Part shown: positions 1 through 19,170 of the stretch, piece by piece | Layout: every line of letters starts with the position of its first letter | How positions within the stretch are numbered: position 1 is the first letter of the stretch | Assembly: GCA_903867985.1 (NCBI GenBank) | Contig: CAIPTO010000032.1 | Coordinates: 1 to 44,685 of the forward strand | Source: an uncultured Elusimicrobia bacterium | Lineage (GTDB): Bacteria > Elusimicrobiota > Elusimicrobia > Elusimicrobiales > UBA9959 | Direction of reading: 5' to 3' | Length of the DNA: 44,685 nt | Translations under genes and position numbers: made by a program | Notes under the pieces: generated by a model | Told to the model about the DNA's origin: nothing | Seen by the model: only the letters and a program-made list of their open reading frames with translations | Database searches by the model: none

Positions 1-161
1 CAAGCGTCCCGGGGAAAGACCATCCATGGAGGAGGTTTATTCCCGCAAAAAAAACGGTGCAACAGCCAGTATTAAGCAGTCAGCCATCATGACATTTCTA
101 AAAAACTTAAACCATGACATTTTAACTTGCTTGCAACAGACCTCGGGAAGCCTAAAGAGGC

Positions 162-1610
162 TTAGAAAGATTCAGGGTACACCCATTTTTGGAACACTTT
201 ATTAGTGGCCCTTTTATCTTTTAACAAATTAAAAACAGCCTCAAAAACCCCTTTCAGGAATTTGCAGCGCTCATTGGCCGGCATATAACCCCAGAGACTG
301 CCCTGGGTCTGGTAATTATATACCGGGCATACGCCGCAGTAAGGCCGCCAGACGCAGCGCGCGCACATCGGCTGAGAGTCCAGGCAGGAAGCCGCGGCGC
401 AGGCCTTAACCGCGGCGGAAGAAACAACGCCGGCATAGGTGTCCTTAAAAATATTCCCTATCCTGAAAATGGGGTCCCCCTGCCAAGCCAGCATCCGAGC
501 CTCGTCGCAGGTATATATATCCCCGTTAAAATTATAGGCAAGCTGTCCGAGCCCCGCCCCGCAAGGACAGCGAAGATCCACATACTTATTGTCTTCAAAT
601 CCTAACACTTTTTTAAGTATGAGAAAGGCCGTTTTTTCTTTTAAAAAAATCCCTTTTTTATTCAGTTCCACTACGCGCGCCAGGCTGTTACGATAGAACT
701 GCGAGAACTCTCCGGAGGTGTAACCTGCTGTCTTCCAGATAGTACGGGCAAAACCGATTGGCGTTAGTGGCCTGACAAAAACGGAATGAAGCCCCAACCG
801 CGCGTATTCGTCTATAATCTCCCTTTCCCGGCCAAGAGAGTAGCGGGAAACCGTCAGCAGCGCGCTGGGGCCGCAGTCGGAATCCTTTCCACACCGCTTT
901 CGGAAATATTTTATCCACTTTACTGTCACCGCATGGGAACCGCCGCCTCCGGCACGGAGCGGGCGGTTCCGGTCGTGAAGGTCCGCCGGACCGTCCAGCG
1001 AGGTGCAGAGAGCGACCCCGTGCCGGATGAGAAATGAGGCTTTCTCTTCGGTCATCAGGCTGAAGTTTGACACCAGCGCGAATTTTATTTCTTTGCCGGC
1101 GGCAGCGGCTTTGCGCTCACCATAGACGACGGCTTCTCTAAGCGCGGCCCAGTTAAGCAGTGGTTCTCCGCCCTGGAATTCCACGGTGAGACCCGGACCG
1201 GGTGCGTTGAGGGCGAAATCCAGGCTTTTGTGAACCGCACGGATATCCATATCGGTCCCGCCAGCCGCGGCCCCGGCCGCGCCCGCCTGACAATAAAGAC
1301 ACTTATGATTGCAGCGCAGGGTGAGCACCATAATATGGAGGCCCGGCCCCCGGCGCACATAAGCGTTGGACTGCCCCCACTTGGCCGCCTGGTCTTCAAA
1401 ATCCAGCATGTCCCGGGCGAATCCCTTGTCGCGCAACTCGTTCAGCGCCGGAGAGGCCTGAAGCGTCCCGGTGCGCGAGAACCGCCTGAACTGCGCGGCG
1501 CTGAGACGCATGTGCTCCCCCGCGTCATTGGTCATCAGGTAATCTCCGCCCAATTTAGCCCAGTAAATATGCGGGGGGGCTTTGATGTCGGCGTTTTTTT
1601 TGGCAGTCAT
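162..1610 (-). CDS. HxsB-like radical SAM/SPASM maturase (copy 1)
   Basis: Cytosolic radical SAM enzyme of 482 aa, predicted to modify a peptide or protein substrate. The SAM-binding cluster motif C-x3-C-x2-C is at C100/C104/C107, followed by GGEP at 147-150. A Cys-rich SPASM region lies at about 348-449 (C348, C350, C368, C409, C416, C419, C425, C428, C449). The N-terminal YLMTNDAGEH stretch, EFQGGEPLLNW, STSLDGP-like and VFVRPLTP-like motifs and the terminal PYCG...TQG segment match my memory of the HxsB family of His-Xaa-Ser systems. It is closely related to the copy at 13559-15016 but has no HxsD gene beside it inside the window. It has no clear Shine-Dalgarno. A possible promoter lies directly after the ygeW terminator, which would give an almost leaderless mRNA. 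The family call is firm for radical SAM/SPASM and good for HxsB-like. The substrate is unknown. Confidence 0.85.
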   Translation of the reverse strand: MTAKKNADIKAPPHIYWAKLGGDYLMTNDAGEHMRLSAAQFRRFSRTGTLQASPALNELRDKGFARDMLDFEDQAAKWGQSNAYVRRGPGLHIMVLTLRCNHKCLYCQAGAAGAAAGGTDMDIRAVHKSLDFALNAPGPGLTVEFQGGEPLLNWAALREAVVYGERKAAAAGKEIKFALVSNFSLMTEEKASFLIRHGVALCTSLDGPADLHDRNRPLRAGGGGSHAVTVKWIKYFRKRCGKDSDCGPSALLTVSRYSLGREREIIDEYARLGLHSVFVRPLTPIGFARTIWKTAGYTSGEFSQFYRNSLARVVELNKKGIFLKEKTAFLILKKVLGFEDNKYVDLRCPCGAGLGQLAYNFNGDIYTCDEARMLAWQGDPIFRIGNIFKDTYAGVVSSAAVKACAAASCLDSQPMCARCVWRPYCGVCPVYNYQTQGSLWGYMPANERCKFLKGVFEAVFNLLKDKRATNKVFQKWVYPESF

Positions 1611-2838: not shown

Positions 2839-3153
2839 TTATTTGCCGGTTTTTTGGGGTTTTTGGATCGTCAGGCCGGTTTTTTTTATAACCTTCCTGT
2901 ATTCTTTACCGGTCGCAGCCCAGTCCACAGTCTCAACCCTGAACGGAAGGCCGGCGCCGGTAAACGCCGTGGAAAGTTTTTCCAGGCGCAGCGGGGTAAG
3001 CGGCTGCGAGGTCATTACTGCGAGGTCCAGATAAGAAAATTTTTTTGCGGTCCCCTCCGCTCTTGAACCGTAACACAGCACCTCATATTCCGGAACATTG
3101 CCGGCGAGTATGCGTTTTACTTTTTTAAGATAATCAGGTTTTAGATCGATCAT
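2839..3153 (-). CDS. MNT-type minimal nucleotidyltransferase domain protein
   Basis: 104 aa protein made of a single nucleotidyltransferase-fold segment: CYGSRAEGTAKKFSYLDLAV at about 27-46 gives the GS-x10-D-x-D-like pattern, although the second acidic residue is replaced (LDLAV). Such small proteins (MntA/MenA-like) often pair with a HEPN toxin, but no HEPN gene is adjacent here. It sits between ygeW- and ygeY-like genes on the same strand. There is no Shine-Dalgarno (AAATTATG start context). The loss of one metal-binding Asp could mean weak or no catalysis. Function is not assignable beyond the fold. Confidence 0.65.
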   Translation of the reverse strand: MIDLKPDYLKKVKRILAGNVPEYEVLCYGSRAEGTAKKFSYLDLAVMTSQPLTPLRLEKLSTAFTGAGLPFRVETVDWAATGKEYRKVIKKTGLTIQKPQKTGK

Positions 3154-3241
3154 AATTTATCCGGTCAGAGGTCTGGCGGACGCGCGCTCAGCCGTCCATA
3201 CCTATTTTCTAGCAAATGCCGACGGGCTTAGCAACAAGAAT

Positions 3242-3277
3242 AGTGGTCAGTAAATTTTTCACTATCTGCTGACCACT
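3242..3277. other. Stem-loop downstream of ygeY-like gene
   Basis: AGTGGTCAG (3242-3250) and CTGACCACT (3269-3277) are perfect 9-base inverted arms around an 18-base loop, starting 5 bases after the ygeY stop on the minus strand. No real T tract follows on the minus strand, so termination is doubtful. The GTGGT/ACCAC words recur in other intergenic spacers of this window (33250-33350, 34840-34866). Confidence 0.5.
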
Positions 3278-3281
3278 GGTT

Positions 3282-4622: not shown

Positions 4623-5873
4623 TCACAGGAAGGAGAGATATTTATCCAGCGCTTCCACAAAAGCGTCTATATCGCCCTTTGAGGTGTGTATGAAGAAAGA
4701 GATCCGCGCTGTCTCGCCTATGCCGCTCAGCAATGAAGCGAGGTCCGCGCAGTGGCGCCCGGTACGGATGGCCACAAAGCGGTCTTTTAAATAGTTGTTA
4801 AGGAAAATGTTGAGGTCTGCAGGCGCGAACGCGCCTTTGACGGGCACAAAGGAAAGCAGGGCGCCGCGCTCAAGGTCGCCTGGCTCGCCGAGTATTTTTA
4901 TTTGTCTGAAGCCGGCAAGCGCGGCGAAGGCGTGCCGCGAGAGCTTGATCATATGGGCGCGCACCGCTTCCGGGCCGACCGCTTTAAGCGTTTCAAAGGC
5001 CTTGGCCAGGCCGATGGCGCCGGCGTAGTTTTGTATGCCGGCCTCAAACCCCTGATAATCACCCAGATATTCCACTTTAAAGCCGCGGCCCGAGAAGTCC
5101 ACCTTTTTAACCACCCCGCCTCCGACTTTAAAATGTTTAAGCCGGGCCAGCATGCCATCCCTGATCCAAAGTACGCCTATACCGAAAGGGGCGCCCAGCT
5201 TATGCCCGGAAAAAGCCAGGGCGTCCGCGCCTGACTCCTGCGCCAGCACGGGGTGAGTGGGCGCGTACTGAGCGTCGTCGGCAAATACGGCCGCGCCGGC
5301 CGCCCTGGCCATAGCCGCCATCTTGCCGAACTCCGTGACGCCGCCGGTGAAATTGGAGGCGCGGGTGGCGGCCACCAAAGCGGTTTTTTTGTTCAACATC
5401 CGCCCGAAAGCGTCCAGATCCGGCTTAAGATCTTTAAGGGGCATAACCCTGAGTTTTATTTTTCCGGTCTTTGAAAGGTTGTAAAAAGGCAGGAAAACGC
5501 TGTTATGTTCCAGCGGCGAGAGTATAACCTCGTTCTTTGCCGGAGTGAACGGGAAAGCCCCGGCGAAAATATTCACGGTTTCGGTGGTGCCGCTGGTGAA
5601 GATGATCTCCCCCGGCGAGGCGGCGCCCACGAATTCGGCCGCGGCGGACCGGGCCGCGGTGTACTTCTCCTCAACAGCCCTGGCCAGCGCGTGCGAGGAG
5701 CGCTTGCCGCCGCAACCACCCAGATCCAGCAGAAATTCCTTCTGCGCTTCGGCGGCCGACTTCATCTTAAGCGCGGTGCACGCGCTGTCGAGATATATCA
5801 TCTTTCGCCCGCCGAACCTGCGTTCTAGCGCCGGAAACTCACCGGTGAGCGGCAAAGTTATTTTTTTGTTCAT
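4623..5873 (-). CDS. SufS/CsdA-like cysteine desulfurase (class V aminotransferase)
   Basis: PLP enzyme of 416 aa expected to release sulfur from cysteine as a persulfide, possibly for Fe-S cluster supply. The PLP lysine lies in the AFSGHKLGAP motif, and the catalytic cysteine is in RTGRHCADL near the C-terminus, the position of the SufS RxGHHCA loop. A DSACTALK-like N-terminal substrate motif and TSGTTETVN are also present. The start at 5873 is chosen because its ATG overlaps the stop of the upstream radical SAM gene (ATGA), and an AAGGA sequence precedes it. A longer in-frame start at 5963 would overlap the neighbour heavily. Translational coupling to a radical SAM gene suggests a role in maturing local Fe-S enzymes. 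SufB/C/D partners are not in the window. Confidence 0.85.
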   Translation of the reverse strand: MNKKITLPLTGEFPALERRFGGRKMIYLDSACTALKMKSAAEAQKEFLLDLGGCGGKRSSHALARAVEEKYTAARSAAAEFVGAASPGEIIFTSGTTETVNIFAGAFPFTPAKNEVILSPLEHNSVFLPFYNLSKTGKIKLRVMPLKDLKPDLDAFGRMLNKKTALVAATRASNFTGGVTEFGKMAAMARAAGAAVFADDAQYAPTHPVLAQESGADALAFSGHKLGAPFGIGVLWIRDGMLARLKHFKVGGGVVKKVDFSGRGFKVEYLGDYQGFEAGIQNYAGAIGLAKAFETLKAVGPEAVRAHMIKLSRHAFAALAGFRQIKILGEPGDLERGALLSFVPVKGAFAPADLNIFLNNYLKDRFVAIRTGRHCADLASLLSGIGETARISFFIHTSKGDIDAFVEALDKYLSFL

Positions 5874-6733
5874 ACCTGATTCCTTCCGCGCAGCGAGTGG
5901 TGAACGGCGATATAATCTTTTCTGGGACCGGGACACAGCCTGAAAAAGCCGCAGCCTTTGCATTGCGGCACTTTTTCCTTTTCATCCAGATGCGGCCCCT
6001 TTATTCCGGCGCGCATCTTAGCCATATCCACGTTTTTAGCGTGATGCCGGCCAAGAAAACAGGGCGGGATATGATCTACGTCGCATTTGAGCCCTTTCTT
6101 GCCGCATAGGTCAAGGGCTTTCAGCAGATACGGCGCCGCCTTATGATATTCCGGGGTGAACCGGGAGCCTTCGGCACGGCCTATCCCTTTTATAAAGCTA
6201 AACTGCAGCCAGGAGAGACCCGTTAGTTTTTTTGCCGCGAAGGCGGCGAAGCAGGCTGTTTTTTTGCAGTTAAGTTCGGATATCACATGCGTCAGCCGCA
6301 CTTGCGCGCCGAGGGAAATAATTTTTTTCACCGCTTTTGTCCGCGCCGCAAAAGCGCCTTTTATCCCGGTGATCTTAAAGTCCAGCGCGGCGTTATGAGC
6401 CGGGAAATTAAAATTGAAATAGCCTTTGGCGGAATGAACGGCTTTAACCAGTATGGCCCGCTCTGCAGGCTTCATGCCTGCTATAAGCACGCCGTTGGTC
6501 TGCAGTTCCACTGTCCGCCCGGTCCTGGCGCAAAAGGTTATGACTTTGATAAGGTCCCCGAAATCCGCCAGTAAAGGTTCTCCGCCGGATATCTGCACCA
6601 GTCCGGGCTTCATCCCGGCGATCTCTTTCAGCCAGGAACCGATGTTCCCTTCGCCTTCAGCTTTCGCGTCAGCCGGGTAGGAGCAGAACACGCATTTCTG
6701 ATTGCAGCGCCTGAACAAGTGTATTAAAGACAT
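5870..6733 (-). CDS. HxsC-like radical SAM protein
   Basis: 287 aa radical SAM enzyme. The C-x3-C-x2-C cluster is at C10/C14/C17 with GGEP at 50-53. The C-terminal half has IPPCFLG followed by C258-x2-C261-x5-C267 and a Tyr seven residues on, an auxiliary-cluster pattern shared by five radical SAM proteins in this window, including the HxsC-like one at 12281-13168. The start is almost directly at the cluster motif, so the N-terminal lead is very short. It overlaps the downstream cysteine desulfurase gene by 4 bases and is served by the symmetric promoter at 6804-6873. The substrate is unknown. Confidence 0.85.
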   Translation of the reverse strand: MSLIHLFRRCNQKCVFCSYPADAKAEGEGNIGSWLKEIAGMKPGLVQISGGEPLLADFGDLIKVITFCARTGRTVELQTNGVLIAGMKPAERAILVKAVHSAKGYFNFNFPAHNAALDFKITGIKGAFAARTKAVKKIISLGAQVRLTHVISELNCKKTACFAAFAAKKLTGLSWLQFSFIKGIGRAEGSRFTPEYHKAAPYLLKALDLCGKKGLKCDVDHIPPCFLGRHHAKNVDMAKMRAGIKGPHLDEKEKVPQCKGCGFFRLCPGPRKDYIAVHHSLRGRNQV

Positions 6734-6873: not shown

Positions 6874-6899
6874 ATTTTAAGGCGCTTCTTTAAGTGTTT

Positions 6900-8108
6900 A
6901 TGAAAAAACTCCATCTTTCCCTCACCGGCCTCTGTAATGAGCGCTGCCTCTTCTGCACAAAAGCGGGTCAGGGCGGCCAGGGCGAATTATCCGCGGCGCA
7001 ATCCCTGCGTGTAATCTACGCGAAGCGCGCGGAGGGCTGCGACACTCTAATCTTCGACGGAGGTGAGCCGACCCTGCGGCCTGATCTGGGGGCCCTGGTC
7101 TGCGCGGCCATAAAAATGGGCTATCGCACTATAGCCGTTGTCACGAACGGCGTCGCGCTCGCTGATAAAAGCGTCACGGGCAGATTGTCGGCCTGTCATC
7201 CCGCCGCTACGCGCAAACTTGATTTCTGCGTGTCGCTGCATTCGCATCACGGGGATATTTCGGAGCGTCTCACCGGCTCGCAGGCGACATTTGAACGTAC
7301 CCTGGCGGGACTTGACAACATTCTTGAGGCGGGATTTTCAAAAGTGTCGGTATATCATGTCATAACCGAGCTGAACTACCGGGAGCTGCCGCAATTCGCC
7401 GATTTTGTCATAAGACGATTCCCAAAAGTCAGCGAGGTCACATTTTCCTATATTTTCCCATCAGGAGCCGCGCTGGAACACATGGAAATATATCCCCGGC
7501 TTTCAAAGGTCACCCCGTACTTCAGCGCCGCGGTGAAGAAACTTAAAAGAGCGCGCGTCCGCGTGGATCTCAGCGCCTGCGGCATGGTGCCGTTGTGCCT
7601 GCTCGGCGGCAATGAAGACCTTGCCGTGACGCAATATCTTGGCGATAATTCCGCTAATTCCGAAATTTACGACGCGACCAAGGCGGAGCCGTTTATTTTA
7701 TCATCCGCAGAATTCAGCCAGACTCACAAAGTGAAGTCCCGCCGCTGCAGGGCCTGCGTCCTGAACGAAATTTGCGGCGGGATATGGAAGATCTATGCCG
7801 CCCTGCACGGCGTTTCCGAATTGCGCCCGCTTAAATTGGCTCCGGCTTCGGGCCTGCGCAAGCGCGCCCCCGTCAGGATCTCAGCGGGGATGAGGGCCGG
7901 CGCGGATTTTATAGCTTTTCAGGAAGTTTGCATACGCGTTTACGCTGCCCGCAGGCACGGATATTCGCGCATCATATTTACCGGAAGTCACTGGCGTGAC
8001 CGCGCTGACATGCCGAAACTTATGGAATTTATTAACAAGCTTGGTTTAAAATTCGGCCCCCGAAAAGGAAAAATCCGGGCTATACCCGGAAGTTCCTCCG
8101 CGGCATAA
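6900..8108 (+). CDS. HxsC-like radical SAM protein with C-terminal extension
   Basis: 402 aa from the ATG at 6900; an in-frame GTG at 6894 is an alternative. Radical SAM cluster at C12/C16/C19, GGEP at 54-57. The later VPLCLLGG and C283-x2-C286-x5-C292 with a following GGIW...Y segment match the auxiliary motif of the other HxsC-like proteins here. About 110 residues follow that motif, including a segment rich in aromatic and basic residues, which the shorter relatives lack; I do not recognise it. The gene is transcribed away from the minus-strand locus by its own strong promoter. No convincing Shine-Dalgarno is seen (AAGG lies too far upstream). Confidence 0.85.
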   Translation: MKKLHLSLTGLCNERCLFCTKAGQGGQGELSAAQSLRVIYAKRAEGCDTLIFDGGEPTLRPDLGALVCAAIKMGYRTIAVVTNGVALADKSVTGRLSACHPAATRKLDFCVSLHSHHGDISERLTGSQATFERTLAGLDNILEAGFSKVSVYHVITELNYRELPQFADFVIRRFPKVSEVTFSYIFPSGAALEHMEIYPRLSKVTPYFSAAVKKLKRARVRVDLSACGMVPLCLLGGNEDLAVTQYLGDNSANSEIYDATKAEPFILSSAEFSQTHKVKSRRCRACVLNEICGGIWKIYAALHGVSELRPLKLAPASGLRKRAPVRISAGMRAGADFIAFQEVCIRVYAARRHGYSRIIFTGSHWRDRADMPKLMEFINKLGLKFGPRKGKIRAIPGSSSAA

Positions 8109-8933: not shown

Positions 8934-10121
8934 TTAGATTCCTTCAGGCGGAGTTTTTTTAAAGCTCCAGTAGAACTTCCCTTTGGAGAACCGACTGGAC
9001 ACAAAGCCTTTTTCTATCAGCTTCTGAGCCGAATTCATCACCGCGTTCCCGTCCGAACAATCCCTGCACAGCACTATTTTCTTTGAAAGTTTAAGCACCT
9101 CGGCCGTGGAAACCTCTTTCTTTATCTTCAGTATCTCCATCAGACAGCGCTCGTTGTCTGAAAAGAACACCTTCCCGGCCGCCGCCGCGATACCGGGCCG
9201 TCCCCCTCCGCGCTTTACCGGCTTAAAGCCTTTAAACCCCCAAATACGCACATAGTTCTCATCCACACCCTTGCAGCTTCCTTTGAGGGTGCAGCCGCGG
9301 CAAGCGGCGCCGTAAACCTTGGCCACATTGGCGTTGGCGTCCAGGTCGGTCTTCTTGCCGTCGGGGGCGGTCACAACCGTGTTGAACAGATCCAGACCTA
9401 TGGCCAGATTTTTTCGCCCTTCCAGAAAACAGGGAGGCGTATTCAGGAACAGTATTTCACCGTGCAGGCCGGCTTTCTCCATAACCTCCACGGCTTTAAT
9501 AAAGTATTTTTCGGCCGCCGGCAGGCTCACGCCTATTTTCCTCGCGTTGGCGGCCATACTGCCGATATAAACCGGATAGATGACGACAAAATTAGTTATC
9601 CCCTTTTCCACGAATGACGCAATTATTTCAGGAAGGCGGCGGTAGTTATGTTTGTTAATAAGGATGTTGGTTCCGATACGGATCTTCAGCTTGCGCAGAT
9701 TCTCAATGCCCTTAACGGCTTTGAGCCAGGCGCCGGGAACCCCCACAAGCCCGTCGTGAACTGACGGCTCGTCGGTGGTGAACGAAAATTTGCAAAAGGT
9801 CAACCCGGCTTTGACCAGGGCGGCGCAAAAAGCGGGGTCAGACAGCTTTATTCCGTTGGTCTGCACCCGGATGAACTTGAATCCGACCGACCGCCCCAGA
9901 GACACTATTTTCAGGATATCAGGCCTTATAAGCGGCTCCCCGCCGGTAAAACCCAGCCGGCGGTAGCCGGCCCTGAAGGAGGAATAGATGTTCCTGGCTA
10001 TTGTCCCGAAATCAGCGTTCAGGGATTTATCAAACGAGCCCTGCGAACAAAAAGAACATTTCGCGTTGCAGTTGTAATTAAGTATCAACTCGTAGCACTT
10101 TGAATTTTTCTTTTCAGACAT
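8934..10121 (-). CDS. HxsC-like radical SAM protein with C-terminal winged-helix-like domain
   Basis: 395 aa. Radical SAM cluster at C18/C22/C25 and GGEP at 60-63. TPPCFLEG and the CRGC...C pattern (C-x2-C-x5-C, then G and Tyr) mark the same auxiliary-cluster subfamily as the neighbours. Residues from about 325 to 395 look like a small helix-turn-helix/winged-helix module (heptad-like helices and a KGKFYWSFKK beta-wing-like end), absent from the other copies; this could bind a peptide or DNA. The start has no Shine-Dalgarno (TTAAATTTATG), and a repeat element sits directly upstream. It is likely co-transcribed with the 10192-11130 gene. Confidence 0.85.
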   Translation of the reverse strand: MSEKKNSKCYELILNYNCNAKCSFCSQGSFDKSLNADFGTIARNIYSSFRAGYRRLGFTGGEPLIRPDILKIVSLGRSVGFKFIRVQTNGIKLSDPAFCAALVKAGLTFCKFSFTTDEPSVHDGLVGVPGAWLKAVKGIENLRKLKIRIGTNILINKHNYRRLPEIIASFVEKGITNFVVIYPVYIGSMAANARKIGVSLPAAEKYFIKAVEVMEKAGLHGEILFLNTPPCFLEGRKNLAIGLDLFNTVVTAPDGKKTDLDANANVAKVYGAACRGCTLKGSCKGVDENYVRIWGFKGFKPVKRGGGRPGIAAAAGKVFFSDNERCLMEILKIKKEVSTAEVLKLSKKIVLCRDCSDGNAVMNSAQKLIEKGFVSSRFSKGKFYWSFKKTPPEGI

Positions 10122-10130
10122 AAATTTAAT

Positions 10131-10206
10131 GTTAGAGGATTAGAGGACTGGAGGATTGGAAGATTAGTCAATAAAGGACCTCTTACATACTCTAATCCTC
10201 TAGTCC
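10131..10206. repeat. Intergenic repeat element (AGAGGACTGGAGGATTGG family)
   Basis: Contains TTAGAGGATTAGAGGACTGG-type words and, inverted, TCTAATCCTCTAGTCCTAT. The 18-base word AGAGGACTGGAGGATTGG recurs exactly at about 26874-26891 after fabZ, and a degenerate form lies before the skp-like gene (about 23326). The element supplies the last codons and stop of the 10192-11130 gene. Confidence 0.7.
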
Positions 10207-11130
10207 TATCGGCCTCAGCTCCCCGTCTCCGTAATGCTTCAGATATTCAACCCATATGCCTTCACAGACGTGCAGGCGCGCGCAGCCTTTACAGGCGGCC
10301 GTGCGCCGTCTGCCGACGGCGCTCCGCGAACCGATGGCATCCGTGTTTTTAAAATCAGGCGCCCAGTGTTCGGTCAGAAAATTTACCCGCTCGTTCATCT
10401 CGCTTATCTGCGCCTCATAACCTTTAAAATGGCATAGGGGGACATAGCGGACCTTCCACTGATCAAAACCGGCGGCGAGACCTATCCTGAGCGCGGCGCG
10501 CATGTGCGGCGCAGCCGCCGATATTCTGGGCACCAGTTCGTCGAAATCGTTCCGGGCGCCTCCGTAATTGGGATCCACGAATATATACTCCACGTTGCGG
10601 ATCCCCAGCCTGACATAAAGCCTGGCTATTGCCGGCAGCGAGCGCATATTGCCTTTGACCACTGTGGTATTGCCGCTTATCCGCCTGAACCCCAGCTTTT
10701 TAAGGTTGACCAGTCCCTTCTTCAGCTCCGCGAAGCTGCCCGGACTGGCGGTCATTTTGTCGTGCACCGCGGCAGAAGGCCCGTGTATCGAAAAGATAAG
10801 TTCATTTATTCCCGCTCCGACGATCGCTCCGGCCATGGATATATCAGAAAACACCCGGCCGTTTGTGGCGCAAACCACTTCGCGTATGCCTATATCCTTG
10901 GCGGCGCGGACCAGGGCCGTAAAATCCGGCCTTATCGTGGCTTCTCCGCCGATGATCTCAAGGATATCCGCGCCTTTTTTTTTGGCCGCGTAGACAGAAG
11001 CCAGCAGCTCCTTGGTGGTCCGCCCCCGCAGGCCCCGTTTGTCCGCGCCGATGCAGAACACACAGCGGTTACTGCACGCGTACCCGGTGAACAGCACTAT
11101 TTTCAGCATCTTGGCGTTTTCGTTTGTCAT
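10192..11130 (-). CDS. HxsC-like radical SAM protein
   Basis: 312 aa. Radical SAM cluster at C19/C23/C26; GGEAT (61-65) replaces the usual GGEP. VPLCHFKG and C280-x2-C283-x5-C289, followed by an EYLKHYGDGELRP segment, closely resemble the C-terminal end of the HxsC-like protein at 12281-13168 (EYYKEFGDAELK). The ATG overlaps the stop of the A24 peptidase-like gene (ATGA), indicating translational coupling. The last residues (GLED) are encoded inside an intergenic repeat element, so the C-terminus may have been remodelled by that element. Confidence 0.85.
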   Translation of the reverse strand: MTNENAKMLKIVLFTGYACSNRCVFCIGADKRGLRGRTTKELLASVYAAKKKGADILEIIGGEATIRPDFTALVRAAKDIGIREVVCATNGRVFSDISMAGAIVGAGINELIFSIHGPSAAVHDKMTASPGSFAELKKGLVNLKKLGFRRISGNTTVVKGNMRSLPAIARLYVRLGIRNVEYIFVDPNYGGARNDFDELVPRISAAAPHMRAALRIGLAAGFDQWKVRYVPLCHFKGYEAQISEMNERVNFLTEHWAPDFKNTDAIGSRSAVGRRRTAACKGCARLHVCEGIWVEYLKHYGDGELRPIGLED

Positions 11131-12284
11131 TTAAGAAGGTGCACGATGTTTTTATCGAAGAGAAGCGAAATAACCGCCCCGGCGAATATCCATAACGCGA
11201 AAGGCCGGCCGCGCATCACTTCTATCTTCGGGTCCGGCATGGTCATCTTAGCCATCCAGTCTTTTATGATCTGGATCTGTTCAGCTGTAAGGCCGTCCTT
11301 AAAACAATCGTCGAACGCTCCCTCAAAAACCGGGTTCTGCCTGAAGGTCTGCGCCGTTTTGGGCAGAAGTATCATGCCCGGTTCCAGTTCGGAGGCCTTA
11401 AGGTACAGCGTGTCTTTGTTTTCAATCAGAGCCTCCAGGACGAACCGCCCTACAAAAAGCAACAGACTGAACTTGACGACGTTACCCATTGCGTAGAACA
11501 CAAGGCTGACCAGCCTATCGTAAAAATAAAAATATCCTACGAAAAAATAAATGACATAACACGCCGTAGTAACATAAAGCCATTTCTTGCTCTGAAAGAC
11601 CGAACCGATCTTATCCCAGAGAAAGAACAGAAAAAAGTAAATGATGTCCGGGCGGGCCAGAAATCTGGACAACAAGTGCCGGCTTTCAGCGTTCATTATC
11701 TGCTGCAGCAGGAACAAAAACGTCATATTGGCCAGATACGCCGTTATCAGCCATCCGTTCTTCTTGTTATCACCGGCCATACTTTTCATCCTGACTTTCA
11801 GGTCGGACCACATACTTTTTAAAAAATCTCCAAGGCTGGCCTGCGCCAGACCGGAGGCGATAAAAGCGCCTATTGTCACCAGCGCTGCCGCGACGAAGAT
11901 ATTTATCAGCAGGCTCAGGAACATGTAATTTGGGAAATTCTTAATATAGGGGTTTATCAGCGGCAGCCAGGCCGCGACCAATATAAAGAACTTGGCGTCA
12001 CCCGCCGGCCAGATCTCGGAATACCAGAGTATCACTCCGGCCAGGACCGCCCAGAAGAAATGCGTGCACCACATGAGATAGAAATTCCAGGTCAGGTAAC
12101 TGGTCGCAGAACCGACTGAACCCTGATAGGTGTTCAGCATCATGACTCCCAGAGCCAGCAGTATCAGCTTGGCTCCGAGCGCCACCCTGGCGTTGGGGAT
12201 CTTCTTTGTGGCGATGTCGATATTTACAATACCCACGGCCCATATGACGAACACAGCCAGACATGAGAGACTGAAAAACTTCAT
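11127..12284 (-). CDS. A24 prepilin-peptidase-like polytopic membrane protein
   Basis: 385 aa integral membrane protein. The two aspartates of the A24 (type IV prepilin peptidase/CpaA-TadV/FlaK) family are visible: D23 in NIDIATKKIPN and D96 in the AGDAKFF motif. The A24 core takes roughly the first 160 residues. The remaining 220 add a loop region and several more hydrophobic segments, much longer than CpaA-type enzymes. There is no N-terminal cytoplasmic Cys domain as in PilD. The ATG overlaps the stop of the HxsC-like gene, and its own stop overlaps the next radical SAM ATG. It is therefore part of the maturation operon, and could cleave or anchor the exported YYPAPYGGY proteins; this is inference. 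Confidence 0.8.
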   Translation of the reverse strand: MKFFSLSCLAVFVIWAVGIVNIDIATKKIPNARVALGAKLILLALGVMMLNTYQGSVGSATSYLTWNFYLMWCTHFFWAVLAGVILWYSEIWPAGDAKFFILVAAWLPLINPYIKNFPNYMFLSLLINIFVAAALVTIGAFIASGLAQASLGDFLKSMWSDLKVRMKSMAGDNKKNGWLITAYLANMTFLFLLQQIMNAESRHLLSRFLARPDIIYFFLFFLWDKIGSVFQSKKWLYVTTACYVIYFFVGYFYFYDRLVSLVFYAMGNVVKFSLLLFVGRFVLEALIENKDTLYLKASELEPGMILLPKTAQTFRQNPVFEGAFDDCFKDGLTAEQIQIIKDWMAKMTMPDPKIEVMRGRPFALWIFAGAVISLLFDKNIVHLLK

Positions 12285-13168
12285 AAAGTTTTAAGCTCCG
12301 CGTCTCCGAATTCTTTGTAGTATTCCATCATGAGACCCAGACACTTTTTTCTGGCTTTACACCCCTCGCATTTTTTTGTGTAGATCCGGTCTTCGGCCGG
12401 CAGTGTTATCCAGCACCGGCTCCGCAGTTTGTTTTTTATCAGGCATAGCGGGAAATGATAGAGCCTGAGATCCGGAAAGTTTTCTATAAGCGGAGCGGCG
12501 GCGTTGATCACCCTGGCCGAATCGGAAAGCCTGAGCGCGAGGCTTTTATGGTTTTTGAGCGACATTCCCTCTATCTCGTAATGGATGACCACCACCCGGC
12601 ATCTGCCGGGGAACGGAAATTTTTTTTGCAGAAATAACAGCGTCTTTGAAAATTCTTTGATGTTGAGACGATGCAGGACCAGCCTTATCTCCAGAAAAAC
12701 GCCTTCCGGCCCCGCCAGCAGATTCTCCAGGCCGCCGACCGTTTCCCGAAAGGCGCCGGTGACTCCGGCCACCTTGTCGTGAACCCGTGAGGAAGCCGCG
12801 TGCAGGGGGACGGCGACTGTCAGACGCGAACCGGCCATATTCAGAAACCGCCGCGTAAAATCCTTATCCGCGAAACGCCGGCCGTTGGAAAGCAGCGTAA
12901 TGCTGACTCCTGGCAGCCTTCTTTTGAAATAAGCCAGCAGCCTGAAAAAATCCGGGTGCAGCGTGGGTTCGCCGCCCGTAAGGCTTAAGAAATCCGCTTT
13001 ATCGTTGTTTTTGAGATAGACAGGACCGAGGCCCTTGAGATAGCTTTCCAGTTTTTTTATCTGGCTTTTCAGACCGTAAAGCGCGGCTTCCTGAGCGGCG
13101 AATTCCGGCAGGTTGGTGCACATGACGCACTTGTTGTTGCACTTATTCCAAAACGGTATGTCTGGCAT
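12281..13168 (-). CDS. HxsC-like radical SAM maturase
   Basis: 295 aa. Radical SAM cluster at C10/C14/C17, GGEP at 65-68. The LSLTGGEPTLHPDF, LLSNGRRFAD, AVPLHAA and EIRLVLHR segments, then FPLCL and the terminal C267-x2-C270-x5-C276, follow the HxsC maturase of His-Xaa-Ser systems as I remember it. HxsB- and HxsD-like genes lie directly upstream, which strengthens the call. HxsC family proteins usually have a longer N-terminus before the cluster; here it begins almost at the cluster. No Shine-Dalgarno precedes the ATG (TAATATTTATG), unlike its 4-base coupled downstream neighbour. Confidence 0.85.
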   Translation of the reverse strand: MPDIPFWNKCNNKCVMCTNLPEFAAQEAALYGLKSQIKKLESYLKGLGPVYLKNNDKADFLSLTGGEPTLHPDFFRLLAYFKRRLPGVSITLLSNGRRFADKDFTRRFLNMAGSRLTVAVPLHAASSRVHDKVAGVTGAFRETVGGLENLLAGPEGVFLEIRLVLHRLNIKEFSKTLLFLQKKFPFPGRCRVVVIHYEIEGMSLKNHKSLALRLSDSARVINAAAPLIENFPDLRLYHFPLCLIKNKLRSRCWITLPAEDRIYTKKCEGCKARKKCLGLMMEYYKEFGDAELKTL

Positions 13169-13268
13169 AAATATTACGGGGCATAAAGCGGAAAGAGTTA
13201 AGCGGGACTTCTTTGCGGCCGATCGCCGACCATCGCGCCATCTGACTGTCGCAGCGCCGAGCCAGCCG

Positions 13269-13562
13269 TCAGCCCTTTTTTCCGGCGGCCGAAAGCAGGG
13301 CCTTGGTGACGATAATGCCGGCGATCTTGGAATTTTTTTTTGCCAGGTCGATGCGGCACTGCTGGTTCAAAACCTCGTTCATAAACTCTGCGGCGGTTAA
13401 GTCCGCGGATCGGGCGCCGATAAGGACTTGCGAAACGCCTTTACCGGGCTTGATCTTTACAGCGGCTCTGCCGGAAAATACGAAGGCGGCCAATTTTACG
13501 GCCTCAGGGCAATAGATCCCGTTATCCAGGATAAGTTTTTTTTCAGGAAGTGAAGTCTTCAT
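13269..13562 (-). CDS. HxsD-like protein (copy 1)
   Basis: 97 aa. YCPEAVKLAAFVF (17-29) and EFMNEVLNQQCR (59-70), then IIVTKALL, match the conserved pattern of HxsD, the small partner of HxsB/HxsC maturases whose hallmark is a LLNDYxLRE-like stretch. It probably binds the substrate or maturase; no enzyme motif is seen. The start at 13562 overlaps the HxsB-like stop (ATGA); an upstream in-frame ATG at 13574 would overlap more. A 100-base gap then separates it from the HxsC-like gene. Confidence 0.75.
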   Translation of the reverse strand: MKTSLPEKKLILDNGIYCPEAVKLAAFVFSGRAAVKIKPGKGVSQVLIGARSADLTAAEFMNEVLNQQCRIDLAKKNSKIAGIIVTKALLSAAGKKG

Positions 13563-15016
13563 TTTGTCACCCATTTGTTAAGTATCTCCGCGTTACCGGG
13601 ACTTTTCAGAAGCGTGAAAAGCGTATCCAATATGCCCTTAAAAAGCCCGCAGCGGTCGTTTGAGGGAATATTACCCCACAGGGACCCCTGAACCTCGTAA
13701 TTATACACGGGGCACACGCCGCAATAGGGCTTATAAGCGCAGCGGGCGCAGGCCGGCTGGGCCTCCAGGTTCGATGAAACAACGCAGACCTTGGTGACCG
13801 GGTCGGTCATCACCTTTTTATAACTATCCTTAAACACATTGCCTATGCGGAAGATATCGTCTCCCTCCCAGCCCACCATGCGGCCTTCGTCGCAGGTATA
13901 CAGGTCGCCGTTATGATTGTAAGCTATCTGGCCGATGGCAGCGCCGCAGGGACAGCGCGCGTCCAGGTAGCCCGGGTCCTGTAAATTCACTATCTTGTCC
14001 AGCATCATGGTGGCCATTTTCTCACGGATGACCACGCCGCGGCGGTTAAGCTTCAGCATATAATCAAGGCTCTTGAGGTAGAACTTCGCGAAATCCGCGG
14101 CGTCGTAGCCGATGGTGCCCCAGAGTTTCCTCGCATAACCGATGGGCGCGAGCGGCCTGACGAATATATCTTCCAGGCCCAGCCTTACATACTCGTCTAT
14201 AATTTCCTTATGCCGCGGCAGCGAATATTTTGAAACGGTAAGCAGAGCGCTCGGCTTGAAAACCCGGTACTCCGGAACCTGTTTTTTGCACCGTTTCTGA
14301 AAATACTTTATCCATTTTACCGTGTCGGAGTGGGAATTCCCGGATGAACAGATCCTGTTCTTATCGTGCAGATTTTTCGGGCCGTCAAGCGAAGTGCACA
14401 GAGAAACCTCGTTTTTGAGGAGAAAATCGGCCTTCTCTTCGGTCATGAGGCTGAAATTAGAAACCAGCGCTAATTTTAATTCTTTGCCCGCCGTCCCGGA
14501 TCTTTTACGCGCGTATTCCACCGCGCCCTTAAGCACTTCCCAATTCAGCAGCGGCTCTCCGCCCTGGAATTCTATGGTTATTCCCGGGTTGGGGGAATTA
14601 AAAGCGAAATCCACGCTTTTACGCGCGGTCGCGAGATTCATGTCGGTCTTCTTGTCGCCCACGCCGGCCGCGCTGGACTGGCAGTAAAGGCATTTATGAT
14701 TGCACCTGAGCGTCATCACAAGGATATGCAGGCCGGGGCCGTAATTCAGATAGGCGTTTTTCTTTTTCCATTTCGCGGCCAGATCGTTAAAATCCAGGCG
14801 GTTCCGGATGAACCCTTTTACCGCCAGCTCCGCGAAAAGGGGATGGAGCTCGGTCATCCCGCCGGCCGTAACCAGCGCGAAATCCTTTTCTTTAAGCCAC
14901 GCGTGATGGCCTGAATCGTTGGTGAGCAGATAATTAGAACCTATTTTCCGCCACAGGGCCTGCGGCAGCACGGAAGTCATCTTTTTACTTTTTTTTGCGG
15001 CCGTTTTTTGAGCCAT
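13559..15016 (-). CDS. HxsB-like radical SAM/SPASM maturase (copy 2)
   Basis: 485 aa paralogue of the 162-1610 protein. Radical SAM cluster at C105/C109/C112, GGEP at 152-155, SPASM-type cysteines clustered between about 355 and 455, including CPCGAAIGQ, YTCDEGRM and PYCGVCPV. The N-terminal LLTNDSGHH segment is typical of HxsB. It is flanked on both sides by HxsD-like genes and overlaps both reading frames slightly, so the HxsD-HxsB-HxsD block is a tight translational unit. A Lys-rich N-terminus precedes an internal Met at residue 13 that could also be the start. Expected to use SAM to modify a side chain or backbone of an exported substrate. Confidence 0.88.
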   Translation of the reverse strand: MAQKTAAKKSKKMTSVLPQALWRKIGSNYLLTNDSGHHAWLKEKDFALVTAGGMTELHPLFAELAVKGFIRNRLDFNDLAAKWKKKNAYLNYGPGLHILVMTLRCNHKCLYCQSSAAGVGDKKTDMNLATARKSVDFAFNSPNPGITIEFQGGEPLLNWEVLKGAVEYARKRSGTAGKELKLALVSNFSLMTEEKADFLLKNEVSLCTSLDGPKNLHDKNRICSSGNSHSDTVKWIKYFQKRCKKQVPEYRVFKPSALLTVSKYSLPRHKEIIDEYVRLGLEDIFVRPLAPIGYARKLWGTIGYDAADFAKFYLKSLDYMLKLNRRGVVIREKMATMMLDKIVNLQDPGYLDARCPCGAAIGQIAYNHNGDLYTCDEGRMVGWEGDDIFRIGNVFKDSYKKVMTDPVTKVCVVSSNLEAQPACARCAYKPYCGVCPVYNYEVQGSLWGNIPSNDRCGLFKGILDTLFTLLKSPGNAEILNKWVTK

Positions 15017-15455
15017 ATTTTTCTTCCCATGTCCTTGTGATCCCGAGCGGGTCTTTGGTCTTATTCCCGGCGGATTCCTTCTTTATCTCGCCCTCAACCT
15101 GCGCTATCAAATCATCCAGTTCCTTCTCCTGCTCCGGAGTAAGGCCGGAGTCTTCCTGCCTGACGCCGGCCGGAACTTCCTCGTAGGCCAGCGCTTTCAG
15201 GATCATAAATTCCCTCAGATCGCGGTTGGCATCGAAAATAGAGGCGCGCAGTTTTTCATCCTTAAGCTCTTCCTTAAAGCGCGCGCTGACATTTTTCGCG
15301 GCGGCGGTCTTGGGTGTGAATTCCACGACCACGCAGCCAACCGCCGGTTTTATAAAAACATACGCCGCGTCGCTTACGGCGTACGCGGCATAGCGGACGG
15401 CATCAAGATTATAGTCCTTCGCATTTACTTTCACGCTCAAATTTATTTTAGTCAA
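14985..15455 (-). CDS. HxsD-like protein with acidic/charged tail (copy 2)
   Basis: 156 aa from a TTG start at 15455, chosen because AAAGGAG (15468-15462) lies 6 bases upstream; the longer GTG start at 15521 would run into the preceding gene and adds residues unlike the family. YNLDAVRYAAYAV (15-27) and RFKEELKDEKLR (59-70) followed by FMILKAL correspond to the two HxsD signatures at the same spacing as in copy 1. The last 65 residues are a charged, probably helical tail absent from copy 1. It lies between a YYPAPYGGY protein gene and the HxsB-like gene, so it may be the adaptor that presents that substrate. Confidence 0.7.
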   Translation of the reverse strand: MTKINLSVKVNAKDYNLDAVRYAAYAVSDAAYVFIKPAVGCVVVEFTPKTAAAKNVSARFKEELKDEKLRASIFDANRDLREFMILKALAYEEVPAGVRQEDSGLTPEQEKELDDLIAQVEGEIKKESAGNKTKDPLGITRTWEEKYGSKNGRKKK

Positions 15456-15492
15456 ACCACGCTCCTTTAACGGCCGGCTGGCCGTCAGCCGC

Positions 15493-16200
15493 TCAATTAA
15501 ATCTGCAACAAACCTTGACACCGCTGCGGGTGTAGGGCATGCTTACATATGTACCCACTCCAGCCGCTCCGTTCTTGTATAGAAATCCACTGACATACCC
15601 GCTGGAGTCGGGGAGAAAGCCGACCATCTGCTTGCGGACGACCCCGTCAGAGTCGGCCGGGCAGGACGCTGTATAGGCGACGCGGCTGCAGGCGTCTTGT
15701 ATAACCCCGGTAAGCGAAAAATCGCCGACAGCCTCAAGGCGGCCCGCCTGGGCCAGCCACAGCCTGGCTGAATAATCCTGCGCCATATTCTGGCTGAAAT
15801 CAACGTGCGGGAAGCCGCCCGACCCGCCCAACTCTATTGAGCCGCCTTGATCGGCAGTCAGGGCGCCGCGGCCGACTCCCCACCGCATTCCAGCGGAAGT
15901 GCTTATAGCGCCGTCCCCAACTTCCAATTTAACAGTCGCGTCACGCCGGTTGCCGGTGCCGTTATAGCCGGCGCCGACATTTATGTAATTGGCGACCCCG
16001 CCATCCCTGGCCAGCAGGGTCTGGCCGGTAGTCAGGAGGGCGGCGTATCCCCCGTAAGGCGCCGGATAATAAGTCGTCAGGGTCAAAGTCTCAGATCCGA
16101 GAAAACCGGGATGCCAGGCCAGAAAAAAAGCGGTCAGGATAAAAAGCGCTTTTCTCCTGGTCAGCCTCAACCGCAAGGTCAGGATATTCTCGTTTTCCAT
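15493..16200 (-). CDS. Exported YYPAPYGGY protein 1 (candidate maturation substrate)
   Basis: 235 aa. An Arg/Lys-rich lead and a hydrophobic segment (about 17-35, containing AWHP) are followed by SETLTLTTYYPAPYGGY, with YYPAPYGGY at 44-52. The middle has a GGSIELGG...DFSQN...DYSARLWL pattern recalling receptor-binding domains of tail fibres and pilus-tip PilV-like proteins. The C-terminal quarter has a CSR...C pair and ends VCCRFN. It is very similar to the next gene up to the CSRV motif, then diverges. The start at 16200 has AAGGGG upstream; a longer frame reaches 16230. Position at the head of the HxsD/B/C operon suggests it is processed by those enzymes (inference). Confidence 0.75.
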   Translation of the reverse strand: MENENILTLRLRLTRRKALFILTAFFLAWHPGFLGSETLTLTTYYPAPYGGYAALLTTGQTLLARDGGVANYINVGAGYNGTGNRRDATVKLEVGDGAISTSAGMRWGVGRGALTADQGGSIELGGSGGFPHVDFSQNMAQDYSARLWLAQAGRLEAVGDFSLTGVIQDACSRVAYTASCPADSDGVVRKQMVGFLPDSSGYVSGFLYKNGAAGVGTYVSMPYTRSGVKVCCRFN

Positions 16201-16243
16201 AAGGCCCCTTGCCCTGAAACCCGCTAACACGCTCGCCTGCTGA

Positions 16244-16966
16244 TTAAAATCTGCAGCAAATCATGGTGCCGTTCCAGTCCTGGCCCAGGGTAACGGCAAC
16301 GCTGTTTATGGTGCCGAAAGTCTGGGTTGTGGGCAAATACCCTGTCACGCGCACCACGCCGTCTCCGTAGGAACCGACTATCTTCCTGGCAACCCCGTCA
16401 GGGTCGGTGGGACAAAACGAAACCGGTCCGGTGATGTATGGAACCCTGCTGCAAACGTTCTGTATGATCCCGGTGACCGCAAAGTCACCTACAACCTCAA
16501 GACGGCCCGCCTGGGCCAGCCACAATCTGGCTGAATAATCCTGCGTCATATTCTGACTGAAGTCGATGCGCGGGGTGCCGCCCGACCCGCCCAACTCTAT
16601 TGAGCCGCCTTGATCGGTAGTCAGGGCTGAACGGTTAAGCCCCCACTGCACGCCGTTAGAGGTGCTTATGCCGCCGTCCCCCACTTCCAATTTGACATTC
16701 GCGTCACGCCGGCTGCCTGTGCCGTTGTAGCCCGCGCCTATGTTTACATATGAGCCGGCTACGCCGCCGTCTCTGGCCAGCAGAGTCTGGCCGGTCGTTA
16801 ACAGATTATTGTAGCCGCCGTAAGGCGCGGGATAATAAGTAGTCAGGGTCAGGGTTTCCGAGCCGAGGAACCTGGGGTGCCAACAGAGGAAAAAAGCCGT
16901 CAGAATAAACAACACCTTTCTTTTGGTCAACCGCAGCTCAAAAGTTGTGATATTCGTGTTTTCCAT
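16244..16966 (-). CDS. Exported YYPAPYGGY protein 2 (candidate maturation substrate)
   Basis: 240 aa paralogue of the 15493-16200 product. Same N-terminal anchor or signal segment with a WHP motif (CWHP instead of AWHP), same YYPAPYGGY at 44-52, same TTGQTLLARDGGV and DQGGSIELGGSGG stretches. The C-terminus differs after VCSRV and ends ICCRF. Conserved N-terminus plus variable C-terminus with retained cysteines is typical of binding-tip variants. An AGAGG Shine-Dalgarno precedes the ATG. It is the first gene after a possible promoter at 17110-17138. No G-F-x4-E prepilin site is seen, so classical type IV pilin processing is not supported by sequence. Confidence 0.75.
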   Translation of the reverse strand: MENTNITTFELRLTKRKVLFILTAFFLCWHPRFLGSETLTLTTYYPAPYGGYNNLLTTGQTLLARDGGVAGSYVNIGAGYNGTGSRRDANVKLEVGDGGISTSNGVQWGLNRSALTTDQGGSIELGGSGGTPRIDFSQNMTQDYSARLWLAQAGRLEVVGDFAVTGIIQNVCSRVPYITGPVSFCPTDPDGVARKIVGSYGDGVVRVTGYLPTTQTFGTINSVAVTLGQDWNGTMICCRF

Positions 16967-18159: not shown

Positions 18160-18561
18160 TCATAGCATTATCACCTTAAACCGGAGTTTGTATTTTTCAG
18201 CCAGGAATCCGGCCGCTGTTTCTGCAATATCCCTGAAATTATCCCGATCGGAAAAAGAATCGGCCAGAAAAAAGCCGGAACTTTCTATTATGACCGCGTA
18301 GCCGCCGGCTTTTATAAAGTCCGGCAGGGATCGCAGGCAATCCAGCAGCGCGTCCCAGTTATGCCCGAAATACGCCGGGAACTTCAAATCGGATGCCAGG
18401 GCTGCAAGCAGGTCCTCTTTATTCTTAATTTTAGTTCCGTCCATACGGACCGTAAAAAAACCAAGCGGAGAAAATAGTTTCTCTATTTCCTCCGCTTTCA
18501 GATTTTTTCCTTCAAGCCTTAAAAAAACTTCCCGGCCCGAAATCGCGTCACGGGGGTCCAT
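18160..18561 (-). CDS. Barstar-family ribonuclease inhibitor
   Basis: 133 aa cytosolic protein. The FPAYFGHNWDALLDCL motif is the barstar signature containing the barnase-binding helix. The gene lies 27 bases after an exported barnase/RNase Sa-like gene on the same strand, the classical enzyme-then-inhibitor arrangement, so it should protect the cell from that ribonuclease before export. GGGAGGAG precedes the ATG closely. The stop overlaps an ATG of the hydrolase frame. The family call is strong from motif and partner. Confidence 0.88.
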   Translation of the reverse strand: MDPRDAISGREVFLRLEGKNLKAEEIEKLFSPLGFFTVRMDGTKIKNKEDLLAALASDLKFPAYFGHNWDALLDCLRSLPDFIKAGGYAVIIESSGFFLADSFSDRDNFRDIAETAAGFLAEKYKLRFKVIML

Positions 18562-18588: not shown

Positions 18589-19170
18589 CTAACCTCTCAC
18601 CACGGTCAGCTGTATAAAATGCGCGTAATGGTCCGGGGTGTAGTACAGCTTCTCGCCGCCCATGATTATGCGCTCCGAGCCGCGGTCGCTTAAATCGGGA
18701 GCGACCTGATAGGTTTGGCCGTCGATCACTACCTCATGCGGCGCGTTGCCGGTCAGGAGAGTGTATTCCTTATAGAAACCGAGGGGTTGCTGCGGCAACT
18801 GTCCCTCTTTATTTTTGAAGGTAGCGCCATCCTGGGGGTAGGGCAGCGGCGCGTTATTGTAAACGTCACTGACAAGTTTGAGGATCGCTCTGACGCGCGC
18901 CGCATCTTCCACTTTAGGGGTCAGGTCGCGGCCGGGCTCTATAACCTTTTCGCTTTCAGGAGAGAGAGGCGCGGCTTCTATTTTTTGGCCGGCGATCATA
19001 TCCCGAAGTTCGCGGGATGGTGCTATATCGGAGAGGAGTTCAACCGCGGGGGCCGGCTTTAAGCCGTTCCCGGAAGCGATACGGTTGATTTGGAAATCGG
19101 TTGCGCCGGCAAAGTTTACCAGCGAGAACAATATCACCGCATTCAACAACAACGCTTTTGTTTTGGGCAT
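18589..19170 (-). CDS. Exported microbial ribonuclease (barnase/RNase Sa type)
   Basis: 193 aa: signal peptide (residues 1-23), a linker region of about 75 residues, then a guanyl-specific ribonuclease domain at about 95-193. PLPYPQDGATFKNKEGQLP, GFYKEYTLLTG, RGSERIIMGG and YYTPDHYAHF align with RNase Sa/barnase; the catalytic Glu, Arg and His are E135, R167 and H181. It is complete and paired with a barstar gene downstream. AAGGATGATCA before the ATG serves as Shine-Dalgarno. The role could be nutrient scavenging or antagonism of neighbours; the long pro-region is unusual compared with barnase. Confidence 0.88.
   Translation of the reverse strand: MPKTKALLLNAVILFSLVNFAGATDFQINRIASGNGLKPAPAVELLSDIAPSRELRDMIAGQKIEAAPLSPESEKVIEPGRDLTPKVEDAARVRAILKLVSDVYNNAPLPYPQDGATFKNKEGQLPQQPLGFYKEYTLLTGNAPHEVVIDGQTYQVAPDLSDRGSERIIMGGEKLYYTPDHYAHFIQLTVVRG

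What the first reader, a model, noticed from the sequence alone, without database searches (positions are those of the whole stretch)
8934..16966. Hxs-like peptide-maturation operon with no HxsA and an A24 peptidase
HxsB-, HxsC- and two HxsD-like genes stand together with an A24 prepilin-peptidase-like protein and two exported YYPAPYGGY proteins, with ATGA overlaps at several joints. The known His-Xaa-Ser system is HxsA-HxsB-HxsC-HxsD. Here no protein with His-Xaa-Ser repeats is present, so a different exported substrate and a membrane protease appear to have been substituted. This may be a new radical-SAM maturation-and-export system.
Basis: partly seen in the sequence, partly recalled or inferred. 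Interest (0 to 1): 0.88.

Follow-up and report, generated by a model that had tools for sequence, protein, structure and literature searches.

The report
Hxs maturation locus, partners beyond HxsA
This is one half of a large radical-SAM protein-modification locus (the uncharacterised His-Xaa-Ser system) in an Elusimicrobiota bacterium; the supposedly missing HxsA gene lies just past the window's edge, but the exported cysteine-tailed proteins and the membrane peptidase are genuine conserved partners not listed for the known system.

Summary
The genes are as described. HxsB scores far over its curated cut-off; HxsC- and HxsD-like proteins hit best but below cut-off. The window is a whole contig that breaks at a multicopy repeat (IS-like); a typical HxsA4 (142 aa, NF038313 91 bits, cut-off 55) is encoded 1.5 kb inside the end of contig C144, and synteny with a same-genus genome places that end at window base 1, downstream of a second HxsB (162-1610). 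HxsA occurs in 54 of 59 genomes of the family, 46 of 52 hits within 3 kb of an HxsB. What remains is a real variant. (1) In 38 family genomes a YYPAPYGGY protein lies within 3 kb of HxsB. The YYP module is generic; the Hxs-linked copies are marked by a C-terminal Cys-Cys tail (52/53 versus 5/40 unlinked). Some Patescibacteria keep the tail without YYP, beside a true HxsA. (2) A long (~390 aa) A24 peptidase with both catalytic aspartates accompanies HxsB; the ordinary prepilin peptidase is never linked (0/40). HxsA4 has an invariant FLxSEE(G/A)(K/R) leader that it may cut. Function is inferred, not shown. New variant of a known kind.

The parts
16244..16966 (-). Exported YYPAPYGGY protein A (240 aa): N-terminal hydrophobic segment, SETLTLTTYYPAPYGGY module, C-terminal tail with C172 and C237-C238 (ends ICCRF)
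   Evidence: no Pfam or NCBIfam hit
15493..16230 (-). Exported YYPAPYGGY protein B (245 aa), 70% identical to A, ends VCCRFN
14985..15521 (-). HxsD-like protein 1 (178 aa; the true start may be further in)
   Evidence: TIGR03976 46.6 bits (cut-off 50)
13559..15016 (-). HxsB radical SAM/SPASM maturase
   Evidence: TIGR03978 484 bits (cut-off 370); nearest solved relative is 5wgg
13269..13574 (-). HxsD-like protein 2 (101 aa)
   Evidence: TIGR03976 36 bits, NF038315 HxsD_rel 23 bits; confident beta-alpha-beta-beta-alpha-alpha model, pLDDT 93, no significant PDB fold match
12281..13168 (-). HxsC-like radical SAM protein
   Evidence: TIGR03977 166 bits (cut-off 267.9)
11127..12284 (-). Long divergent A24 (prepilin-type) peptidase, both catalytic aspartates D23 and D96 (WPAGDAK) conserved
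10192..11130 (-). Radical SAM protein, HxsC4-like
   Evidence: NF038332 124 bits (cut-off 500)
8934..10121 (-). Radical SAM protein, HxsC/HxsC4-like, with C-terminal extension
   Evidence: orthologues beside Hxs in relatives
6894..8108 (+). Radical SAM protein, HxsC4/HxsC-like, opposite strand
5870..6733 (-). Radical SAM protein, HxsC-like, conserved in the cluster of relatives
4623..5963 (-). SufS-like class V aminotransferase (cysteine desulfurase family), recurrent in the cluster
162..1610 (-). Second HxsB; in the same-genus genome G222 it is followed by an exported protein and HxsA
   Evidence: TIGR03978 471 bits (cut-off 370)
1..130 (.). End of a multicopy repeat (IS-like) at which the contig breaks; by synteny HxsA4 (C144:61457-61885) lies beyond it, outside the window

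Best explanation
The finding is the front half of an expanded, HxsA4-type His-Xaa-Ser (Hxs) locus of an Elusimicrobiota bacterium, cut in two by an IS-like repeat at the contig edge. Most likely working: HxsB, with the small HxsD proteins, and the HxsC-like radical-SAM proteins modify two kinds of precursor in the cytoplasm. One is HxsA4, with an FLxSEEGK leader and a long Gly-Ser-His repeat. The other is the C-terminal Cys tail (C..C..CC) of exported fibre-like proteins encoded just upstream of hxsD. HxsA4 is then released or exported at the membrane by the dedicated long A24 peptidase, probably by cutting after the Gly/Ala of SEE(G/A)|(K/R) as in prepilins. Both products end up outside the cell, perhaps as one surface structure. 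Shown here: family assignments, presence of HxsA4 in the genome, conserved linkage, conserved Cys tail, conserved catalytic aspartates. Inferred: which enzyme acts on which substrate (Cys tail as substrate about 0.45; A24 cutting HxsA4 about 0.4), the chemistry, and the final structure.
For: HxsB over cut-off twice. HxsA4 in the same genome over cut-off, with synteny to G222: HxsB2, an exported protein, HxsA, in that order. Both contig ends are the two ends of one multicopy repeat. HxsA in 54 of 59 family genomes, 46 of 52 hits within 3 kb of HxsB. YYP proteins in 38 genomes within 3 kb of HxsB. CC within the last 22 residues: 52/53 of YYP copies in HxsB loci, 5/40 of copies elsewhere, 1/20 in genomes without HxsB (Fisher p about 5e-19, not corrected for kinship); background 28/1660 other genes in these loci. 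Patescibacterial loci L146 and L149 keep the tail without YYP, beside HxsD-HxsB-HxsA; L098 is similar. Long A24: 24/35 within 15 kb of HxsB against 0/40 for ordinary PilD; present in 43 of 47 HxsB-positive genomes of the class, and only 3 of the listed positives lack HxsB over cut-off (my tally); also linked in L098, L129, L149, L150, L153. HxsA4 leader: F 68/69, S-E-E 69/69, G or A 69/69, K or R 68/69. HxsA of Aeromonas and HxsA2 of Nostoc lack that leader, and no A24 is annotated in those regions.
Against: No biochemistry. HxsC- and HxsD-like proteins are under their NCBIfam cut-offs. Pfam's pilin models do not match the HxsA leader, and a conserved leader is equally expected if it is only the docking site for HxsB/HxsD. 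The E at +5 of true prepilins is absent (an acidic residue sits at +6 in most). A few YYP copies unlinked to HxsB also carry CC (5/40). The Cys tail could simply form disulfides outside the cell. Related genomes are not independent, so the counts overstate the evidence. The physical join C144-C32 is inferred from synteny; many contig ends share this repeat.
Confidence: 0.6

Rival explanations
1. A new radical-SAM system in which HxsA was lost and the YYPAPYGGY proteins plus the A24 peptidase took its place.
For: No HxS-repeat protein within the window; the TIGR03979 model finds none in the genome.
Against: HxsA4 is in the genome at the syntenic place. TIGR03979 is simply the wrong HxsA model: it scores the related HxsA4 proteins of L152 and L149 at only 19 and 16 bits. 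HxsA is next to HxsB in nearly all relatives.
Confidence: 0.03
2. An ordinary Hxs system acting on HxsA4 only; the Cys-tail proteins and the A24 peptidase are neighbours of a common surface-structure operon but are not handled by HxsB.
For: HxsA4 and HxsB alone satisfy the known scheme; YYP modules are generic exported modules in this phylum; four Cys could form disulfides. In L116 and L138 the Hxs genes lie next to type IV pilus-like genes.
Against: The Cys tail tracks HxsB linkage (52/53 against 5/40) and reappears without YYP in Patescibacteria directly upstream of hxsD.
Confidence: 0.3
3. The A24 peptidase processes the YYP proteins or other pilin-like proteins rather than HxsA4.
For: The YYP proteins have a conserved basic segment and one N-terminal helix; some Hxs loci carry true pilin genes.
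Against: No conserved Gly before the hydrophobic segment in YYP proteins; genomes with many YYP proteins but no HxsB, such as G165, are not among the listed long-A24 hits; HxsA4 has the G/A-K site.
Confidence: 0.15

Closest known systems
His-Xaa-Ser (Hxs) system, HxsA-HxsB-HxsC-HxsD (NCBIfam TIGR03976-TIGR03979; variants HxsA2, HxsA3, HxsA4, HxsC4, HxsD_rel)
   Same: HxsB over cut-off, HxsD-like and HxsC-like proteins, HxsA4 over cut-off elsewhere in the same genome; HxsD-HxsB adjacency as in the annotated Aeromonas plasmid
   Different: HxsA separated from HxsB1 by about 15 kb and an IS-like repeat; two HxsBs, two HxsDs; five further radical-SAM genes in the window; a Cys-tailed exported protein upstream of hxsD; a dedicated A24 peptidase; HxsA with an SEEGK leader instead of a plain signal peptide
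Type IV / Tad prepilin peptidases (A24; PilD, TadV, archaeal preflagellin peptidases)
   Same: Both catalytic aspartates; PF01478 matches, over cut-off in some relatives
   Different: About 390 aa with a long C-terminal part; linked to HxsB and present in addition to the ordinary prepilin peptidase found in most relatives
SCIFF maturase CteB and other SPASM peptide maturases (thioether-forming)
   Same: HxsB's nearest solved relative is 5wgg, which I know as CteB; Cys-containing candidate substrate
   Different: Substrate is not a short SCIFF peptide; the chemistry of HxsB is unknown

Membership tests
Hxs system | HxsB radical SAM/SPASM maturase (TIGR03978) | tested here: met
   484 and 471 bits, cut-off 370
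Hxs system | His-Xaa-Ser repeat protein (HxsA family) | tested here: met
   HxsA4 at C144:61457-61885 (L157:11458-11886), NF038313 91.4 bits, cut-off 55; outside the window; TIGR03979 itself does not hit
Hxs system | HxsC (TIGR03977) | tested here: inconclusive
   Best family hit 166 bits, E 7e-49, below the equivalog cut-off 267.9
Hxs system | HxsD (TIGR03976) | tested here: inconclusive
   46.6 and 36 bits, cut-off 50; only family hit for HxsD1, best hit for HxsD2
Hxs system | HxsA, B, C, D in one short operon | tested here: not met
   HxsA lies beyond the contig edge, near HxsB2; the joint is inferred from synteny
A24 prepilin-type peptidase | Two conserved catalytic aspartates in a membrane protein | tested here: met
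   D23 and D96 invariant in 31 homologues and in alignment A4; PF01478 below cut-off for the window copy, above it for some relatives
Prepilin-like substrate (HxsA4) | Match to a pilin family profile | tested here: not met
   No pilin model hit at E up to 10
RiPP precursor (Cys-tail protein) | Radical-SAM-dependent modification of the tail | not testable with these tools
   Needs mass spectrometry

The most novel reading that the evidence does not exclude
HxsB/HxsD modify the C-terminal Cys tail of full-length exported fibre-like proteins as well as HxsA4, and a dedicated A24 peptidase processes HxsA4 like a prepilin, so that the Hxs locus builds a radical-SAM-modified, pilus-like surface structure shared by Elusimicrobiota, Patescibacteria and some archaea.
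Probability: 0.22. Interest if true: 0.82.

Novelty: new variant of a known kind. Interest (0 to 1): 0.52.

Why it matters
The Hxs system is widespread (500 plasmid records hold an HxsB relative), yet the paper search found no experimental study of it, and neither its substrate range nor its purpose is known. This work adds two testable partners: a Cys-tailed exported protein whose tail, not its YYP motif, tracks HxsB, and a dedicated A24 peptidase that tracks HxsA4-type systems. If right, it links peptide-modifying radical-SAM enzymes with prepilin-type processing and says what a system with up to about 20 radical-SAM genes in 60 kb may be making. It also shows how a contig break at an IS, together with the wrong HxsA model, can create a false 'missing substrate'.

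Tried and rejected
HxsA absent: rejected. YYPAPYGGY as the Hxs-specific feature: rejected, because the N-terminal module also occurs in genomes without HxsB. HxsD as a classical leader-binding (RRE/PqqD) fold: not supported; good model, but no PDB match below E 0.001, and the weak top hits are GlmM C-terminal and Pcc1-like folds. Structure of the YYP protein: too poor to interpret (mean pLDDT 59). HxsA leader as a known pilin signal by Pfam: no hit. Link to the nitrogenase-paralogue/radical-SAM clusters that I recall from an Elusimicrobia survey: that paper is not held, and no nitrogenase gene was seen among the genes annotated, so it was not pursued. Literature on HxsABCD or YYPAPYG: nothing experimental found. 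Laying the whole genome in the Python box was not available.

Full report
1. What is in the window. On the minus strand, from 16966 down to 8934, stand two YYPAPYGGY proteins, HxsD-like 1, HxsB, HxsD-like 2, an HxsC-like radical-SAM protein, an A24-like membrane protein and two more radical-SAM proteins. HxsB exceeds the curated cut-off (484 against 370 bits). The HxsC-like protein (166 against 267.9) and the two HxsD-like proteins (46.6 and 36 against 50) fall short, although TIGR03977 and TIGR03976 are their best hits. The gene at 10192-11130 hits HxsC4 best, well under cut-off. The A24 match is weak by Pfam (E 0.0015), but both catalytic aspartates are invariant in 31 homologues. ATGA overlaps are exact at HxsC/A24 and A24/rSAM. 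The locus extends further left: radical-SAM genes at 6894-8108 (+) and 5870-6733 (-), a SufS-like gene at 4623-5963, and a second HxsB at 162-1610 with 471 bits.

2. HxsA is not missing. The window is one whole contig (C32, 44685 bases). A first genome search with TIGR03979 found nothing, but relatives carry short HxS-repeat proteins near HxsB. Searching the own genome with the one from the same-genus genome G222 gave a hit at E 7e-50 on contig C144. The gene, C144:61457-61885, encodes 142 aa, 'MGKKTSKITKNIKLFFSSEEGKMLDSDIVKTGLALGILG...HGSHGSHGS...', and scores 91 bits against HxsA4 (cut-off 55). C144 is 63388 bases long. In G222 the order is HxsB2, an exported protein 'MKKWGI...', HxsA, and then genes matching the rest of the C144 end. 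The last 120 bases of C144 and the first 120 bases of the window are each present at about 20 contig ends in the genome, as expected for the two ends of one multicopy IS-like element. The join is therefore inferred from synteny, not sequenced. In the family, 54 of 59 genomes have HxsA, and 46 of 52 hits lie within 3 kb of an HxsB.

3. What is conserved around HxsB. The genome is Elusimicrobiota, judged from the titles of its nearest relatives. In the phylum sample 74 of 295 genomes have HxsB over cut-off, including nearly all of the window's family, about 2.2 copies per genome. The recurrent order is Y-D-B-D-(exported protein)-A, then several radical-SAM genes, another B, the HxsC-like gene, A24, more radical-SAM genes and often the SufS-like gene. 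Clusters hold 7 to 20 radical-SAM genes in the family stretches examined. In the window's genus the A gene stands beside the second HxsB in G000 and G222.

4. The YYP proteins. Strong hits in the family are within 1.5 kb of HxsB in 41 of 57 cases. However, the N-terminal module, TTYYPAPxG followed by GxVGIGT-type repeats, also occurs in genomes without HxsB over cut-off, for example 11 hits in G165. I therefore compared C-termini: in YYP proteins from HxsB-bearing loci 52 of 53 have CC in the last 22 residues; in copies elsewhere 5 of 40; in genomes without HxsB 1 of 20 (Fisher p about 5e-19, without correction for kinship). Other genes in these loci have it in 28 of 1660. Patescibacterial loci L146 and L149 encode proteins with the same C..CP..CCK tail but no YYP module, directly upstream of HxsD-HxsB-HxsA; L098 and L141 are similar. 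The tail, not the YYP motif, is the Hxs-associated feature, and it is the best candidate for a second substrate. One YYP protein with a CC tail is unlinked in the own genome (C29).

5. The A24 peptidase. Most family genomes have one ordinary prepilin peptidase of about 264 aa, never on an HxsB contig (0 of 40). A second, longer A24 is within 15 kb of HxsB in 24 of 35 cases. With an alignment of the long form, 53 of 157 genomes of the class are positive. Compared by hand, 43 of 47 HxsB-positive genomes have it, and among the listed positives that one search also covered only G071, G223 and G266 lack HxsB over cut-off. The same long form is near Hxs genes in Patescibacteria (L098, L129, L149) and Omnitrophota (L153), and an archaeal A24 C-terminal domain protein is next to HxsD in a Woesearchaeota contig (L150).

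6. How it may work. HxsA4 begins with a cytoplasmic leader, F-L-x-S-E-E-(G/A)-(K/R), nearly invariant in 69 distinct sequences, then a hydrophobic stretch. HxsA of an Aeromonas plasmid and HxsA2 of a Nostoc plasmid have plain signal-peptide-like starts, and no A24 is annotated beside them. A prepilin-like cut after G/A by the dedicated A24 fits. So does a second reading, that the leader is only a docking site for the maturases; no pilin profile hits. HxsB's nearest solved relative is 5wgg, which I know from the literature as the thioether-forming SCIFF maturase CteB; with the Cys tail this makes Cys chemistry thinkable, no more. HxsD2 is predicted with confidence as a small alpha-beta protein without significant PDB match, so a role as leader binder is not supported by fold.

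7. Verdict. I file it as a variant of the Hxs system (HxsA4 type), not as canonical HxsABCD, because HxsC and HxsD fall under their cut-offs and the genes are not in one short operon. What is shown is anatomy and conserved association; substrates, chemistry and purpose remain inference.

Noticed in passing
window 18160-18561 and 18589-19170 (-): Barstar-like protein next to a barnase-type ribonuclease with an N-terminal signal-like segment: a putative exported toxin and its immunity protein.
   Followed up: no
window 1705-4469 (-): A carbamoyltransferase-like gene and an M20 peptidase-like gene stand between the two halves of the Hxs locus; the pair recalls YgeW/YgeY (from memory).
   Followed up: no
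window 1-130; C144:63269-63388: Ends of a multicopy IS-like element found at about 20 contig ends each; this element fragments the assembly.
   Followed up: partly
L001 1330-2118 (G000:C29): A third YYPAPYGGY protein of the genome, not next to HxsB, with a different middle part and an LCCK C-terminus.
   Followed up: partly
L157:11899-13152 (G000:C144:61898-63151): Exported protein (MKKWGI..., 417 aa) directly upstream of HxsA4, also present in the same place in G222; no family hit of note.
   Followed up: no
L038-L040 (G030:C20:96000-155999): About 20 radical-SAM genes in 60 kb around three HxsB copies, an unusual density.
   Followed up: partly
The HxsA model TIGR03979 misses HxsA4 proteins; a survey relying on it will report 'Hxs without HxsA' wrongly.
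   Followed up: yes
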